In this document: positions 31,264 through 41,069 of the stretch, in pieces | Numbering within the stretch: position 1 is the first letter of the stretch | Layout of the letters: each line of letters begins with the position of its first letter | From: Prescottella agglutinans | GTDB lineage: Bacteria > Actinomycetota > Actinomycetes > Mycobacteriales > Mycobacteriaceae | NCBI RefSeq assembly: GCF_004011865.1 | Contig: NZ_RKLP01000002.1 | Location: 124,001-188,000, forward strand | DNA length: 64,000 bases | Reading direction: 5' to 3' | The notes under the pieces: model-generated | Database searches by the model: none | What the model was told of the DNA's origin: nothing | The model's input: the letters and a program-made list of their open reading frames with translations, nothing else | Translations under genes and position numbers: made by a program

Positions 31264-31998
31264 CTACGACAGGAAGAAGGGCTTGCGCATCGACCACTGC
31301 CCGTAGTCGGGCTTGAGGATCGAGTTGACGTCGACCCCGATTCCGTCGATCTTGCGCTTGTCGATCTCGAACTGGTGCAGGTGTGCCGCGGGATGCACGT
31401 AGCCGGCCGGGGTGCCCCAGTTGTGCTGCCAGAACCAGGAACCGACGCCCGCCCGCAGGCAGCGGTCGATCGTCGGAGAGTTCGCGTAGACACCCACGCT
31501 CCAGTGGCCGAGCACGCTCTCCCAGCCGCGCAGGTACGGCGCGATGAGGTTGTCGAACTCCCACGCGGACGGGTTGTCGTCGATGGAGGCGTAGATGGGG
31601 CTGTCCTCCGGCCCGCCGGCGGCCAGGTGCAGTTCGCGACCGCGCCGCGCATGCCGGACACCGGCGTCGTAACCGCCGCGCCAGTCCGACGTCGCGCCCT
31701 TGCCGAACTGGTAGCACGAGACGATCTGCAGCCCGACGGCCGCCATCGCGGCGGCCTCGCCGAACTGCATCGGCTTGCCGAGCATCCACTCCGCGCCCGG
31801 GCGCCGGTCGGACACGTACCGGACGGCGCCGACGTGCCCGGCGAGCCGGATGCCCAGCGGCGACGGGACGCCCGCGGCGTAATCGACCAGCGTCGCGGGT
31901 CCGGCGTTCGCCATCGCGGGAGCCGCCACGGCGGCCAACCCGGCGGCCGCGGTGCCGGCCGCGGCGAACTTGAACAGTTGTCGTCTGGAGACCTGCAC
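31264..31998 (-). CDS. Tat-exported DUF1906 protein (Rv2525c-like glycoside-hydrolase-like)
   Basis: 244 aa. The twin-arginine signal VSRRQLFKFAAAGTAAAG is clear, with cleavage near AMANAGP. The mature part is a DUF1906 TIM-barrel-like domain (LVDYAAGVPSPLGIRLAGHV, IVSCYQFGKG, NWGTPAGYVHPAAHLHQFEI). M. tuberculosis Rv2525c, the best-known relative, is Tat-exported, looks like a glycoside hydrolase and affects the cell wall. The GTG at 31998 is chosen for GAGG at eight bases; a TTG two codons upstream is the alternative. Confidence 0.82.
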   Translation of the reverse strand: MQVSRRQLFKFAAAGTAAAGLAAVAAPAMANAGPATLVDYAAGVPSPLGIRLAGHVGAVRYVSDRRPGAEWMLGKPMQFGEAAAMAAVGLQIVSCYQFGKGATSDWRGGYDAGVRHARRGRELHLAAGGPEDSPIYASIDDNPSAWEFDNLIAPYLRGWESVLGHWSVGVYANSPTIDRCLRAGVGSWFWQHNWGTPAGYVHPAAHLHQFEIDKRKIDGIGVDVNSILKPDYGQWSMRKPFFLS

Positions 31999-32139
31999 TG
32001 GCAAAACCTCGCATCACCGGCGGATTCCGGCATCGCTTCGACTGGGCGCCCACGACCGATCGGTCTCGGACCGTGTGGATTCGAGGGCTATTTCACCACA
32101 GTCACTCTGGTTCCGTCAGTCACATGAGTGACTTCGGGT

Positions 32140-33141
32140 TCAGTCGGATTCGAGTCCCGCGAAGAAGTCGGTCTGCAGCGTCACGTCCTCGACGACGCGG
32201 GTCGTCGTGCGCACACCGAGTGCGTGTTCCTTGAGGAGTTCGCACAGGCGGTCGCCGTCGATGAGGTCGACGGGCGGGGCGCCGTCGCGGCGCGATTCGG
32301 CCCGCGCCTCGCTCGTGAACGTGCCGGTCGTGATCAGCAGGCCCTTCTCGCCACGTCCGGCCATCGCACCGCGCAGATCCCGCACGGCCCCCGCCCCGAC
32401 GCTCCCGCTGACCCGCTTGCACTGGAACGCGACCGGGAAGCTGAGCAGCGAGATCTGACACATGCCGATGCCGTCGATCCCGCCGTCCGACCCCCGACCG
32501 GTGATCGTGGCGGTCGAGAATCCGGCCTCGCGCAGCAACCGTTGGGTGAGTCGCTCGAAACCGGTGGACGACATTCGCAGGATCGCCTCGAGCAGCGCGG
32601 CCTTCCACTCGACGGAGTCCCCCGATTCGCCGTACGATGCGTCGGATTCGGCGGCGGTATTGGCCGCCGAGAGCGGAAGAACCTGCGGGCCAGGAGTGTT
32701 GGCCTTGCGGCTCAGACGTTGGCGACGCTTGTCGGCCGTGAACGTTGCCAGCAGCGGACGGATGTCGTCCTCGGTCACTGCGCGTCCGCGCTTGGTCACG
32801 CTCCACACCGCACGGCGACTGTTGGCGAGCAGGCCCATTCCCTTGAGATACGTACGCGCCCAAGCCAATCGGTACTCGACCTCGGTACCCGGACCGTCAC
32901 CGTGCAGGATGCCCTGCAATTCGGGCGACCAACCTTCCCGCTCGACGACCGCGCCGTCGAGTTCGTTGTTGGACGCCGAGCCACCGAGAGCGATCAGCGC
33001 CTGGAGCGTGGGCCACAGCAGTTCGGTGTACGGCGGAAGCTGGGCGATCAGATTCACCTGACCGGCGACGTCCCCACGCCGTGGCTCCTGCACCTGCACA
33101 CCCGCTCCCATCGCACCGTCGGTCGGCGGCCGGTTCGACAC
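32140..33141 (-). CDS. Mrr-family restriction endonuclease
   Basis: 333 aa. An N-terminal Mrr_N winged helix (about 30-125, ending VWSVTKRGRAVTEDD) precedes a PD-(D/E)XK catalytic domain (190-320). The active site is GGIDG (D223) and the Q-x-K motif FQCKR (Q240, K242). Mrr enzymes cut modified (methylated) DNA and need no methylase, and none is encoded nearby. Start uncertain: GTG 33141, ATG 33111 or a nearby GTG; ribosome sites are weak. Probably monocistronic defence gene. Confidence 0.85.
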   Translation of the reverse strand: MSNRPPTDGAMGAGVQVQEPRRGDVAGQVNLIAQLPPYTELLWPTLQALIALGGSASNNELDGAVVEREGWSPELQGILHGDGPGTEVEYRLAWARTYLKGMGLLANSRRAVWSVTKRGRAVTEDDIRPLLATFTADKRRQRLSRKANTPGPQVLPLSAANTAAESDASYGESGDSVEWKAALLEAILRMSSTGFERLTQRLLREAGFSTATITGRGSDGGIDGIGMCQISLLSFPVAFQCKRVSGSVGAGAVRDLRGAMAGRGEKGLLITTGTFTSEARAESRRDGAPPVDLIDGDRLCELLKEHALGVRTTTRVVEDVTLQTDFFAGLESD

Positions 33142-34790: not shown

Positions 34791-35375
34791 TCAGTTGTCG
34801 ACGAGCACCTGGATAGCGGCGCCGTAGCGCTCGACGATGTCGTCGATCGGGGCGTCGCGCAGCCACGGGCTCTCCATGACGTACAACGCGGCCATCAGCC
34901 CGGACAACTGCGCCGCGAGCAGGTGCGCGCGCAACTCCGCGTCGTCTCCACGCAGGCGCGGGGCGAGGGGCGCGACGATCATCTGGTCGATCGCCTCCTG
35001 AAGATGCTCGCGCACGACGGGACGATCGGACGCCCGCACAAGCGCCGCGTAGACGGCCGTCGCCTTGTCCGCCTGCCGGCGACGCGTCCTGCGGGCGACG
35101 AAATCCACCAGCGCCCTTCCCAATCCGTCCAACGGACCCTCCACGACCTCGACGAAGGCGTTGGACATGGTCATGGTCCGGACGAACAACTTCTCCTTGG
35201 ACCCGAAGTAGCGGATGACCAGCGCCGGGTCCACCCCGGCGTGCCGCGCGATGTCCCGCACCCCGGTCGCGGCGAATCCCTGCTCGGCGAACAGTTCGGC
35301 AGCGGCCTCCTGCACCGCTTCGCGGTTGTGCGCGCTCCCGGCACGCGAGTGGGGTTCAGGTGTCTCGACGGTCAT
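34791..35375 (-). CDS. TetR-family regulator
   Basis: 194 aa. The N-terminal helix-turn-helix is FAATGVRDIARHAGVDPALV followed by IRYFGSKEKLF, typical of TetR; the C-terminal helical ligand domain ends DIVERYGAAIQVLV. ATG at 35375 follows GAAGGACG. It is divergent from the permease at 35518 with three 15-bp operators between them, so autoregulation and repression of the permease are likely. Confidence 0.9.
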   Translation of the reverse strand: MTVETPEPHSRAGSAHNREAVQEAAAELFAEQGFAATGVRDIARHAGVDPALVIRYFGSKEKLFVRTMTMSNAFVEVVEGPLDGLGRALVDFVARRTRRRQADKATAVYAALVRASDRPVVREHLQEAIDQMIVAPLAPRLRGDDAELRAHLLAAQLSGLMAALYVMESPWLRDAPIDDIVERYGAAIQVLVDN

Positions 35376-35426
35376 CGATCGTCCTTCGTTCGCAGTGGTT
35401 GCCGCCAACCTTGCCGCACAGCCTAC

Positions 35427-35488
35427 GTCAACAATGTTGACAAGCGGGTGTCAACACTGTTGACTAACGTCTCGTCAACAGTGTTGAC
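35427..35488. promoter_or_regulatory. Triple TetR operator GTCAACA-N-TGTTGAC
   Basis: Three 15-bp palindromes with identical arms lie at 35427-35441 (centre A), 35450-35464 (centre C) and 35474-35488 (centre G). Start spacings are 23 and 24 bp. The last site ends 30 bp before the permease ATG at 35518. Confidence 0.9.
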
Positions 35489-35517
35489 ATTTCGACGATT
35501 CAGAAAGGGCGATGCGG

Positions 35518-36624
35518 ATGCCCAACACCACCGATCAGCGACAGCAGGAGTGGACCCAGGCCATCGAGGCCGATACGGAGGCGGTCGCTCCCGCGCTCCA
35601 TCTCGATCACGGACCGGCACCGCAGCCGGCCGGTCCCGGTCGCCCGCCGTGGCGCATGATCGTGGAGTCGATGGTGTTTCCGCTGTTCTTCGCGGTGATG
35701 TTCGCCCTCTGCTACGTCAGCGCCTTCCACAACCCGGCGCCCCGCGGCGTCGAGGTCGTCCTGGTCGGGCCGGAGTCCGCCGCGACCACCCTGGTCGAGC
35801 GGCTCGCACCGACCGTCGGCGACAAGTTCGATCTGAGCACCGCCACCGATGCCGCGGGCGCACTCGATCGCCTGCAGAACCGCGAGATCGCGGGTGTCAT
35901 CGAACTGGGCTCGACGATGAACGTGCACATCGCGTCCGCCGAGGGCACGATGCGGGTGCAGGCGGTGGAGGGCCTCGCCGGGCCGCTCGCCGCAGCCCAG
36001 GGCGTCGAGATGAACACCGTCGACCATGCGCCGCTGGCCGCGGACGACCCGACCGGCACCGGCCTCTTCTACCTCGTGATGGTGAGCACGATCGTCGGGT
36101 ACCTCACGATCACCGTGCTCTCCCAGGTGGCGCCGCGACTGAAGCTGCGCCAGCAAGTCGGCGTCCTCGGTGTGATGTCCGTGATCGGTGTCGTTGCGGC
36201 CTATCTCGTTTCGGCGATCTTCGTCGGCTTCTACGGCGCCTCGTTCGCGACGAGCCTGGCGTTGCTCGCGGTGGTGATTGCCTACACGATCGTCGTGGGG
36301 CTGGTCAGCATCCTGGTGAACCGAGTGTTCGGCAAGGCCGCGATCATGGTGGTGATGATCCTCATGATCTTCGTGAACTTCCCCAGTGCGGGCGGCGCGT
36401 TCCCGGCCGACTTCCTGCCGGGGTTCTGGTCGGGGCTGAGCCACTTCTGGATCGGCGCCGGCGCGGTCGACGCGACCCGCTCGATCGTCTACTTCGGCGG
36501 CACGGGCGTGGGCCACGGCCTGCTGGTGATCGCGGGATGGTTGGTGGTCACGGCTGCGCTGCTGGGGCTCACCCAGCTCCGCAAGCCCTCGGCCGCAGAG
36601 GCTCCGAAGCACCTGGCCGGCTGA
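35518..36624 (+). CDS. ABC-2/DUF3533-like membrane permease
   Basis: 368 aa. One membrane helix (about 52-70) anchors a roughly 130-residue external domain (VEVVLVGPESAATTLVERLA, then IAGVIELGSTMNVHIASAEG), followed by five helices from residue 180 to 355. This is the layout of YhgE/Pip and SNG1-like (DUF3533) proteins, linked to export or drug tolerance. No ATPase gene is adjacent. ATG at 35518 has AAAGG nine bases upstream, better placed than the ATG at 35512. Under the triple TetR operator, it is probably induced by a toxic compound or lipid. Confidence 0.78.
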   Translation: MPNTTDQRQQEWTQAIEADTEAVAPALHLDHGPAPQPAGPGRPPWRMIVESMVFPLFFAVMFALCYVSAFHNPAPRGVEVVLVGPESAATTLVERLAPTVGDKFDLSTATDAAGALDRLQNREIAGVIELGSTMNVHIASAEGTMRVQAVEGLAGPLAAAQGVEMNTVDHAPLAADDPTGTGLFYLVMVSTIVGYLTITVLSQVAPRLKLRQQVGVLGVMSVIGVVAAYLVSAIFVGFYGASFATSLALLAVVIAYTIVVGLVSILVNRVFGKAAIMVVMILMIFVNFPSAGGAFPADFLPGFWSGLSHFWIGAGAVDATRSIVYFGGTGVGHGLLVIAGWLVVTAALLGLTQLRKPSAAEAPKHLAG

Positions 36625-38731: not shown

Positions 38732-39403
38732 TCAGTTCACGCCGTCGCCCGACCGGTTCGGTGTCCCGACAAGGTCTGCGAACACGACGGTGTTGTCGCG
38801 GTAGCTGCGCGCTTGGGTGTCGAACTCCCCTCCACAGGTGATCAGCCTCAGCCCGGGGTGGTCGATGTCGCCGTAGACCCTCGCGGTCGGGAAGGCATCT
38901 TTCGCATAGCGTTCCACGCTCGCCACACGGAACACCGCGGTGACACCGTCGGCCCGGTCTGCGCGGATCTCGTCCCCCGGCGCCAGTTCGTGCAGTCGGA
39001 AGAAGACTCCGGGCTCGCCGTCCCAATCGACGTGTCCGGCGATGATCGCAGGTCCGAGTTCACCTGGAGTCGGTGAACCGGAATACCATCCGGCCGGGAA
39101 CCCGCCCGGCGGCACCTCCAGCGCCCCGTTCGGCTCGAGTCCGAGATTCATCAGGTCGGAATCGACTCCGATGGCCGGAATCGCAAGTCGGACCGGTCGC
39201 GCAGCCGCGACCGACGCAGACTCGGTGCCCGTGTCGACAGCCGGCCCGGGCGCCGCTTGTACGACGGGCGGCGGTGGCGGTCCGCCGGTTTCGTTTGCGG
39301 TGCAACCGCTCAACGCCAGAACGAACACCGTGCACGCGGCCAGCACCGTCGACAGGCCGTTACCGAACGATCGTCGGCCACGGCCTGTCGAAGTGTTGCT
39401 CAT
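38732..39403 (-). CDS. Class F-like sortase with lipoprotein signal
   Basis: 223 aa. Catalytic residues fit a sortase: H124 in IIAGHVDW, C190 in LRLITCGGEF, and R199 or R202 in QARSYRDNTV. The compact domain (68-212) and the ITCGG-FD form agree with class F of actinobacteria. The N-terminus is a signal peptide ending in a lipobox LSGC (C34), so the enzyme should be a lipid-anchored exoenzyme rather than the common single-helix form. ATG at 39403 has GGAG seven bases upstream. It lies just after the anchor remnant of the 369-aa repeat protein, and the original gene order repeat protein-sortase is inferred from both copies. Confidence 0.85.
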   Translation of the reverse strand: MSNTSTGRGRRSFGNGLSTVLAACTVFVLALSGCTANETGGPPPPPVVQAAPGPAVDTGTESASVAAARPVRLAIPAIGVDSDLMNLGLEPNGALEVPPGGFPAGWYSGSPTPGELGPAIIAGHVDWDGEPGVFFRLHELAPGDEIRADRADGVTAVFRVASVERYAKDAFPTARVYGDIDHPGLRLITCGGEFDTQARSYRDNTVVFADLVGTPNRSGDGVN

Positions 39404-39617: not shown

Positions 39618-40727
39618 CTACGTGGCGCTGTCACCGGCCTGGCTGCCGAGCACCGCGCTGCCGAGGTCACCGGTCTGGCTGCCGAGCGCCGCGCTGCCGA
39701 GATCGACATGGGCCCCGCCGCCACCGGTGCTGCCGGCCAAGCTACCTAGGGCGGTCGCGGTGCCGGTCATGAGGTCCCCGAGGCTGCCGAGGCCGCCCTC
39801 ACTGCCCGCCGCGAGACTGCCGGCCACGAGGTCCCCGAGGCCGCCGAGGCCGCCCTCACTGCCCGCCGCGAGGCTGCCGAACGGAAGCGCGAGGCTACCG
39901 ACGGCCAACTCGCCGAGGCTCCCCAGATCCAGACCCGCGTCACCCGCGCTACCCGCACCGAGGGCGACGGCGGCACTACCCGCGTTCACGATGTCACCGG
40001 CACTGCCCGGATCGGCGCTGCCCGAGGCGAGCCCGACGCTTCCGAGCGCCAGTTCCGACAGGCTCCCGAGGTCGAGACCACCGAGATCGATTTCTGCGCT
40101 GCCACTTTCGGCACTGCCACTTTCGGCGCTACCGCTTCCGATCTCGCCGATGCTGCCCGTATCGACCTGGCCGGCGCTGCCCGCGAGCCCGCCGAGCAAG
40201 TCGAGTCCCAGTTCCAGGCTGCCCAAGCTGCCGGAGCTGCCGGTGTCGGCACCGCTGCCCGTCCCTCCGGCGCTGCCGCCACCCACATTCCCGACGCTGC
40301 CGAGCGCGAAATCTGCAGCGGCCTCCTCGATGCTTCCGGCGTTCAGCCCGTCGCCGGCGAGGCTGCCGGCGACGATGTTTCCGAGGCTGTCGAGGGCGAC
40401 CTGCGCGAGGTACGCCAGGTCGAGGTTGCCCGCGCTGCCCACGTTGATGCCGGGTCCCACCGCGCTTCCGAGACCGACCTCGCCGTTACCTCCGATAACG
40501 CTACCCGAGAGACCTCCGTCGCCGTTACCTCCGATAGTGCTCCCGAGACCCGAGGGCCCGCCTTCGGCACCACCGTTCACACTGCTCCCGATTCCATCCC
40601 CCTGAGCCGACGCAGCGTGACCGATGGCGGGAGTGGCAATCGCCAGGGAAACCACCGCTGTGGCGGCAACCATGATGCGACTCTGCATCTTTCGTGTTCG
40701 TAACTTCCCTGACCCGTGGGTAGACAT
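39618..40727 (-). CDS. Gly/Ser/Leu-rich repeat surface protein, short paralogue (anchor lost)
   Basis: 369 aa. A Sec signal peptide (MQSRIMVAATAVVSLAIATP then AIGHAA) precedes about 330 residues of low-complexity repeats built on GS-x-G-x-LGSL and LDLGSLGELALGSL units; AAGSEGGLG-LGDL is present twice near the C-terminus. No catalytic motif; almost no aromatic, Cys or basic residues after the signal. ATG at 40727 has GAGGAGGT nine bases upstream. It is a paralogue of the 797-aa protein. Without its C-terminal hydrophobic anchor the product should be released rather than retained. Confidence 0.8.
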   Translation of the reverse strand: MSTHGSGKLRTRKMQSRIMVAATAVVSLAIATPAIGHAASAQGDGIGSSVNGGAEGGPSGLGSTIGGNGDGGLSGSVIGGNGEVGLGSAVGPGINVGSAGNLDLAYLAQVALDSLGNIVAGSLAGDGLNAGSIEEAAADFALGSVGNVGGGSAGGTGSGADTGSSGSLGSLELGLDLLGGLAGSAGQVDTGSIGEIGSGSAESGSAESGSAEIDLGGLDLGSLSELALGSVGLASGSADPGSAGDIVNAGSAAVALGAGSAGDAGLDLGSLGELAVGSLALPFGSLAAGSEGGLGGLGDLVAGSLAAGSEGGLGSLGDLMTGTATALGSLAGSTGGGGAHVDLGSAALGSQTGDLGSAVLGSQAGDSAT

Positions 40728-41069
40728 CGTTCTTGGACCTCCTCGATCGGCGTTTCCAGATACAAAGACAGGCAACCCAGTCGCATGAGAACAGAAATGA
40801 CGAAAAACGCCCCCGAAAACCCGTCAGCCCCCACTGAAACGGATAGCAAATCCCCCGGCCACATGCGTACAAGCGCGATCAAGATAGCACCTCGGATCGA
40901 TAACGATCATCGATCCCGCGATTTCCGCGAAATCCGTTCGTATAATTGACCGCTCCGACCGCGCAGACCGGGATGACCTGCGTATTTCTTTCCACAACGA
41001 ACGTTCTGACGACGCGACCCCCACCCGGTGCCCGCCCCGCGGGCGGTGCAGCGCGTCAGCGGATGCGAT
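40728..41069. other. Duplicated 5' region of the short repeat protein gene
   Basis: 342 bp without a gene. It is closely similar to 43605-43965: both contain the leader near the start codon, an A-rich stretch (AAATGACGAAAAACGCCCCC) and a GATCGATA-ACGATC palindrome-like box (40895-40908; perfect form at 43772-43785). It probably carries the promoter; homology to the sortase stub begins about 41083. Confidence 0.7.

What the first reader, a model, noticed from the sequence alone, without database searches (positions are those of the whole stretch)
35427..35488. Three identical-arm 15-bp TetR operators in 62 bp
GTCAACA-N-TGTTGAC occurs three times with only the centre base varying and 23/24-bp spacing. 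Such strict triplication suggests cooperative, tight repression of the DUF3533-like permease.
Basis: seen in the sequence. Interest (0 to 1): 0.5.

Follow-up and report, generated by a model that had tools for sequence, protein, structure and literature searches.

The report
Conserved triple operator of TetR repressor
Three near-identical 15-base palindromes between a repressor gene and a membrane-transporter gene are almost certainly the landing sites of that repressor; they are kept at the same close spacing in related bacteria, and a very similar three-site arrangement was already known in Streptomyces.

Summary
The sites lie between a divergent TetR gene (34791-35375, -) and a permease gene (35512 or 35518-36624, +). 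The operator reading is strongly supported by comparison; binding was not tested. Among 34 relatives of this TetR in its clade that were found by protein search, 29 have an array; 0 of 21 outside the clade have a site. In 37 distinct arrays, 66 of 66 pitches are 22-25 bp, and 25 of 27 beside the permease have three sites. In the genus, 9 of 9 genomes with the TetR have a tandem pair, 0 of 5 without. The array stays when the divergent gene is an MFS transporter or an enzyme. Cooperativity is plausible from the fixed pitch, but neighbouring sites are out of helical phase, so it is inferred. 'DUF3533-like' is not supported. The closest precedent is SCO7222 of Streptomyces, with three perfect TGGAACGNCGTTCCA operators, bound and repressing. 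New member of a known kind, with unusually strict geometry.

The parts
34791..35375 (-). TetR-family regulator gene (194 aa from ATG at 35375; a TTG at 35408 would lengthen it)
   Evidence: Pfam TetR_N 1.5e-17 and TetR_C_16 5.9e-21. By eye a GAAGGA-like ribosome site precedes the ATG.
35420..35425 (-). possible -10 element (TAGGCT, reverse strand) of the tetR promoter, 1 bp from operator 1
   Evidence: A TANNNT stands beside operator 1 in 8 of 9 genus loci, not in L013. The promoter scan found no consensus promoter in 35340-35560. Inference.
35427..35441 (.). operator 1, GTCAACAATGTTGAC
   Evidence: conserved in relatives
35450..35464 (.). operator 2, GTCAACACTGTTGAC
   Evidence: conserved in relatives
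35474..35488 (.). operator 3, GTCAACAGTGTTGAC
   Evidence: in some relatives the permease-proximal copy has one change against the R/Y core (GTCATC..., L013, L015-L019)
35512..36624 (+). ABC-2-type/YhgE-Pip-like membrane protein (370 aa from ATG 35512; ATG 35518 may be the true start)
   Evidence: ABC2_membrane_3 6.5e-05, below its cut-off; pip_yhgE_Cterm 5.7e-09, below its cut-off; AlphaFold2 model, mean pLDDT 71. Start: by eye, several relatives align best at 35518.

Best explanation
The three palindromes are operators for dimers of the divergently encoded TetR (TetR_N + TetR_C_16). Each 15-bp site holds one dimer (inferred from established TetR biology). Three dimers packed at 23-24 bp pitch cover about 62 bp between the two start codons, block RNA polymerase on both sides, and so repress the permease gene and the tetR gene itself (inferred). 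An unidentified small ligand, probably something the permease handles, would release the repressor (inferred). Because the pitch is kept while spacer sequence is not, neighbouring dimers probably touch or bind cooperatively (inferred, about 50-60%). In two relatives the same regulator probably also controls a short-chain dehydrogenase gene, which has a tandem pair upstream.
For: Exact sites. In 37 distinct TetR-linked arrays (103 sites counted at one mismatch or fewer against the R/Y core, sites up to 40 bp apart joined), 66 of 66 pitches are 22-25 bp (22:5, 23:33, 24:18, 25:10); spacers differ in sequence. A scan of the 84,980-species genome collection with gaps of 3-20 allowed found 17 tandem stretches; 16 of 17 have gaps of 7-10 and 14 of 17 have this TetR at E 1e-8. 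Of 34 clade members found by TetR protein search alone, 29 have an array; of 21 TetRs outside the clade, 0 have a site at one mismatch or fewer. Genus: 9 of 9 genomes with the TetR have a pair, 0 of 5 without. Order sample: 6 of 397 genomes have a pair; besides the own genome, 4 of 5 have the TetR homologue beside it, and the fifth has pitch 33. Class sample: 1 of 394, the own genome. Array-bearers share the helix D[PA]ALV[IM]R[YHW][FY]GSKE. The array stays when the partner is an MFS transporter (6 arrays), a hydrolase, a DapB_N-like or an AMP-binding protein. Tandem pairs upstream of the SDR gene in G003 and G009. Experimental precedent: SCO7222.
Against: No binding or expression data. The counts are not phylogenetically independent. 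Site counts used a mismatch limit, which inflates apparent conservation. Eight of the 37 arrays were found by the motif itself, so only the 29-of-34 figure is free of that bias. In the clade, L029 and L073 have no site within 350 bp upstream of the TetR, and L024-L026 have a single one-mismatch site. Outside the clade, L074 and L075 have a similar helix but no site. No consensus promoter was found. SDR homologues in the own genome and five other genus genomes, and the second G009 copy, have no site.
Confidence: 0.88

Rival explanations
1. The sites are TetR operators but each dimer binds independently; three copies merely raise local occupancy and cover two promoters.
For: At 10.5 bp per turn, neighbouring sites at 22-25 bp are rotated about 34-137 degrees (69 and 103 in the window), and sites 1 and 3 (47-48 bp) about 171-206 degrees, so simple same-face contact is not expected. 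All arms are identical in the window, so there is no sign of an affinity order.
Against: Independent binding does not by itself explain 66 of 66 pitches within 22-25 bp, unless close packing or promoter geometry sets it.
Confidence: 0.4
2. Another regulator, encoded elsewhere, binds the sites.
For: Three of 17 tandem stretches have no hit to this TetR in the fetched DNA (L035, L047, L049); L061, at pitch 33, has none either.
Against: Genus co-occurrence 9 of 9 versus 0 of 5; the array follows the TetR clade through changes of partner gene; L047 lies in a genome that has the TetR elsewhere.
Confidence: 0.06
3. The palindromes are repeat debris or repeated -35-like TTGAC boxes rather than operators.
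For: TTGAC inside each arm resembles a -35 hexamer (by eye).
Against: No other copy at zero or one mismatch of the original pattern in the genome; arms conserved while spacers diverge; no promoter match.
Confidence: 0.03

Closest known systems
SCO7222/SCO7223 of Streptomyces coelicolor (PMC3511530; passages read)
   Same: TetR-family regulator divergent from its target across 146 bp; three perfect 15-bp repeats of TGGAACGNCGTTCCA with only the centre base changing; three EMSA complexes, three protected regions, and a negative effect on the neighbour's reporter.
   Different: Different arm sequence; target annotated as a monooxygenase; two sites lie closer to the regulator gene and one closer to the target, so not described as one compact array; nothing on conserved pitch in the passages read.
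tetR/tetA control region (described in PMC3511530, passages)
   Same: Divergent genes; more than one 15-bp palindromic operator in the gap; the repressor controls both genes.
   Different: Two operators, not three; tetracycline efflux pump; different operator sequence (recalled).
EthR of Mycobacterium tuberculosis (mentioned in PMC5660060, passages)
   Same: Mycobacterial TetR-family repressor on a long 55-bp operator; a cited title says it octamerizes cooperatively.
   Different: Imperfect direct repeats rather than separate perfect palindromes.
DarR and MAB_4384 (PMC10636190 and PMC5895659, passages)
   Same: TetR-family proteins of mycobacteria and Rhodococcus for which two dimers on one operator were reported.
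   Different: Two dimers on one short palindromic operator, not three spaced sites.
Phage lambda right operator (spacing recalled, from no call; sets of three operators and pairwise contact of adjacent dimers: PMC5880393 passages)
   Same: Three operators between divergent promoters, with a recalled centre spacing of 23 and 24 bp.
   Different: Unrelated protein fold; operators of unequal strength.

Membership tests
TetR-family regulator | N-terminal TetR helix-turn-helix and TetR-type C-terminal domain | tested here: met
   TetR_N 63.5 bits (cut-off 24) and TetR_C_16 75.1 bits (cut-off 26.2)
TetR-type self- and neighbour-regulated divergent pair | divergent target gene less than 200 bp away | tested here: met
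   136 bp between ATG 35375 and ATG 35512 (142 bp if the start is 35518); 200-bp rule from PMC3511530
TetR-type self- and neighbour-regulated divergent pair | palindromic operator in the gap, conserved with the regulator | tested here: met
TetR-type self- and neighbour-regulated divergent pair | regulator binds the palindromes and represses | not testable with these tools
   needs EMSA, footprint and reporter
Cooperative multi-operator array | binding at one site raises affinity for the next | not testable with these tools
   only the fixed pitch of 22-25 bp bears on it
DUF3533 (Pfam) | match to the Pfam family | tested here: not met
   no DUF3533 entry among Pfam matches up to E = 1 for any of 18 permease sequences
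ABC-2-type membrane protein (ABC2_membrane_3) | Pfam match above the curated cut-off | tested here: inconclusive
   window protein 22.6 bits against cut-off 31.6; homologue L030 35.6 bits, above it; 12 of 18 match at E 1 or better; fold search weak, best E 4.7e-3
YhgE/Pip (NCBIfam) | match above the curated cut-off | tested here: not met
   35.9 bits against cut-off 102.2

The most novel reading that the evidence does not exclude
A TetR clade uses a lambda-operator-like array: three dimers at a fixed 23-24 bp pitch, each turned about a quarter helix turn from the next, bind cooperatively as a spiral chain. Cooperativity would come from contacts between dimers that are not on the same face of the DNA, with three sites specially selected where the target is the permease (25 of 27 arrays).
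Probability: 0.25. Interest if true: 0.5.

Novelty: new member of a known kind. Interest (0 to 1): 0.3.

Why it matters
It gives a well-supported operator sequence and a likely target for a TetR clade on which I found no paper, present in three families of the same order (group codes f1, f2, f16) and in one Microlunatus, so the regulator, its ligand and its permease can be tested directly. The strict spacing across many species is a natural data set on how repeated TetR sites are packed.

Tried and rejected
DUF3533 identity of the permease: no Pfam support. A conserved forward -10 (TAACGT after operator 2): not kept in relatives (by eye). The SDR gene as a regulon member in the own genome: its homologue there has no site. 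A second array in G006 as a new target: it is a decayed duplicate of the same cassette, with fragments of permease and TetR around it. Other near-matches in the own genome: few, and not much above the reversed control (5 against 2; 4 against 1). The divergent partner of L048 was not identified: two ORFs tried, no Pfam match. Permease fold: PDB matches weak; a profile search of PDB sequences gave one match at E 0.42.

Papers. All ten searches: I saw listings, and passages of six papers (PMC5660060, PMC4482099, PMC5895659, PMC10636190, PMC3511530, PMC5880393); none of what I saw describes this operator or regulator. That is weak evidence of absence: other listed TetR papers were not opened, sequence strings are searched poorly, and the motif logos of PMC4482099 are not in the held text.

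Rows dropped. One search counted 38 arrays; L037 proved a duplicate of L018 by exact match of 110 bp, and recounts 37. L038, L039, L040, L043, L044, L045 and L051 are also duplicates and were not counted; L070 and L071 duplicate L042 and L041. L024-L026, L029, L035, L047, L049, L061, L073 and L096 are not in the 37. L072's permease was confirmed. That L074 and L075 are not divergent from their upstream gene was judged by eye. One search printed only distinct helix-and-site combinations; one search lists all 21 outside rows.

Full report
Observation. The window holds GTCAACANTGTTGAC exactly three times, at 35427, 35450 and 35474, with centre bases A, C and G. Shuffles give a mean of 1.28 matches at up to three mismatches; the window has four, three of them perfect and adjacent. 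In the 5.4-Mb genome they are the only exact copies.

Setting. Left of the sites, on the minus strand, is a 194-aa TetR-family regulator with TetR_N and TetR_C_16 domains; its best matches among solved sequences are putative TetR regulators 2np3 and 2guh. Right of them is a 370-aa membrane protein. It hits ABC2_membrane_3 and YhgE/Pip, both below cut-off; of 18 sequences in the alignment 12 hit ABC2_membrane_3 and none showed DUF3533. A medium-confidence model (mean pLDDT 71) has a first long helix, an alpha/beta domain and further long helices; PDB matches are weak (none at E 0.001) and include ABC transporters.

Phylogenetic footprint. The TetR was found in 9 of 14 genus genomes and, at E 1e-20, in 52 of 301 family genomes. 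Reading the gaps shows arms that stay fixed and spacers that change. Counting 37 distinct arrays: 25 have three sites, 10 two, 2 four; 66 of 66 pitches are 22-25 bp. Of 27 arrays beside the permease, 25 have three sites, one four, one two; of 6 beside MFS genes, 5 have two and one four; the 4 others have two. The site is GTCAAC-[A/G]N[T/C]-GTTGAC; the count allowed one mismatch, so its purity is partly built in.

Independent scans. Tandem pairs with gaps of 3-20 in the 84,980-species collection: 17 stretches, 16 with gaps of 7-10, 14 with this TetR. If gaps were evenly spread over the 18 allowed values this would have a probability near 5e-10, ignoring relatedness. Order sample: 6 of 397 genomes, of which five others than the own; four of those have the TetR homologue and the fifth, at pitch 33, does not. 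Class sample: 1 of 394, the own. In the genus, all 9 genomes with the TetR have a tandem pair and none of the 5 without it. These counts are not independent of descent.

The array follows the regulator, not the target. In a TetR tree of 63 rows (quick method), one clade of 42 (SH-aLRT 99) holds all 37 array-bearers and five others: L024-L026 with a single one-mismatch site, and L029 and L073 without a site within 350 bp upstream. Eight of the 37 came in by the motif; of the 34 clade members found by protein search alone, 29 have an array. Of the 21 TetRs outside the clade none has a site at one mismatch or fewer in the fetched stretch. Partners include MFS transporters, an alpha/beta hydrolase, a DapB_N/DAP_DH protein and an AMP-binding enzyme; that of L048 is unknown. 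Array-bearers share the helix D[PA]ALV[IM]R[YHW][FY]GSKE; L029 has it too, and L073, L074 and L075 have a close form, without an array.

Other targets. In two genus genomes (G003, G009) a tandem pair lies upstream of a short-chain dehydrogenase gene; homologues in six other genus genomes, the own one included, and the second G009 copy have none. In L021 a similar dehydrogenase follows the permease on the same strand (by eye).

Mechanism. Shown: sequence, position, conservation, co-occurrence. Inferred: one dimer per site, repression of both genes, ligand release, cooperativity. The pitch rotates neighbours by about 34-137 degrees at 10.5 bp per turn, so contact on one face is not the simple answer; lambda repressor is recalled to cooperate at 23-24 bp, which would show that such spacing is no bar. 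No consensus promoter was found; a TANNNT beside operator 1 on the tetR side is kept in 8 of 9 genus loci.

Comparison. SCO7222 of Streptomyces coelicolor has three perfect TGGAACGNCGTTCCA repeats, three EMSA complexes, three protected regions and a negative effect on its neighbour (passages of PMC3511530). The present locus is the same kind of thing with different arms, a transporter target and a tighter, conserved array. Verdict: real, well supported, ordinary in kind.

Noticed in passing
L096:2472-3012: Genome G006 holds a second, decayed copy of the cassette: operator-like sites with fragments of permease and TetR around them.
   Followed up: partly
L047:896-933 and L053:1331-1368: Tandem operator pairs (pitch 23) upstream of a short-chain dehydrogenase gene in two genus genomes.
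   Followed up: partly
L035:283-319: Tandem pair (pitch 22) just before an acyl-CoA dehydrogenase gene in an Actinomycetota MAG, with no hit to this TetR in the fetched DNA.
   Followed up: partly
L049:7907-7964: Archangium MAG with three GTCAAC palindromes at other spacing (12 and 31 bp) and no hit to this TetR.
   Followed up: no
window 32140-33141: Mrr-type restriction endonuclease gene (Mrr_cat, Mrr_N).
   Followed up: no
window 31264-32004: Rv2525c-like glycoside-hydrolase domain protein with a weak Tat signal match.
   Followed up: no
window 39618-40775: ORF with a strongly repetitive Gly/Ser/Ala/Leu translation, near the sortase-domain gene at 38732-39403.
   Followed up: no
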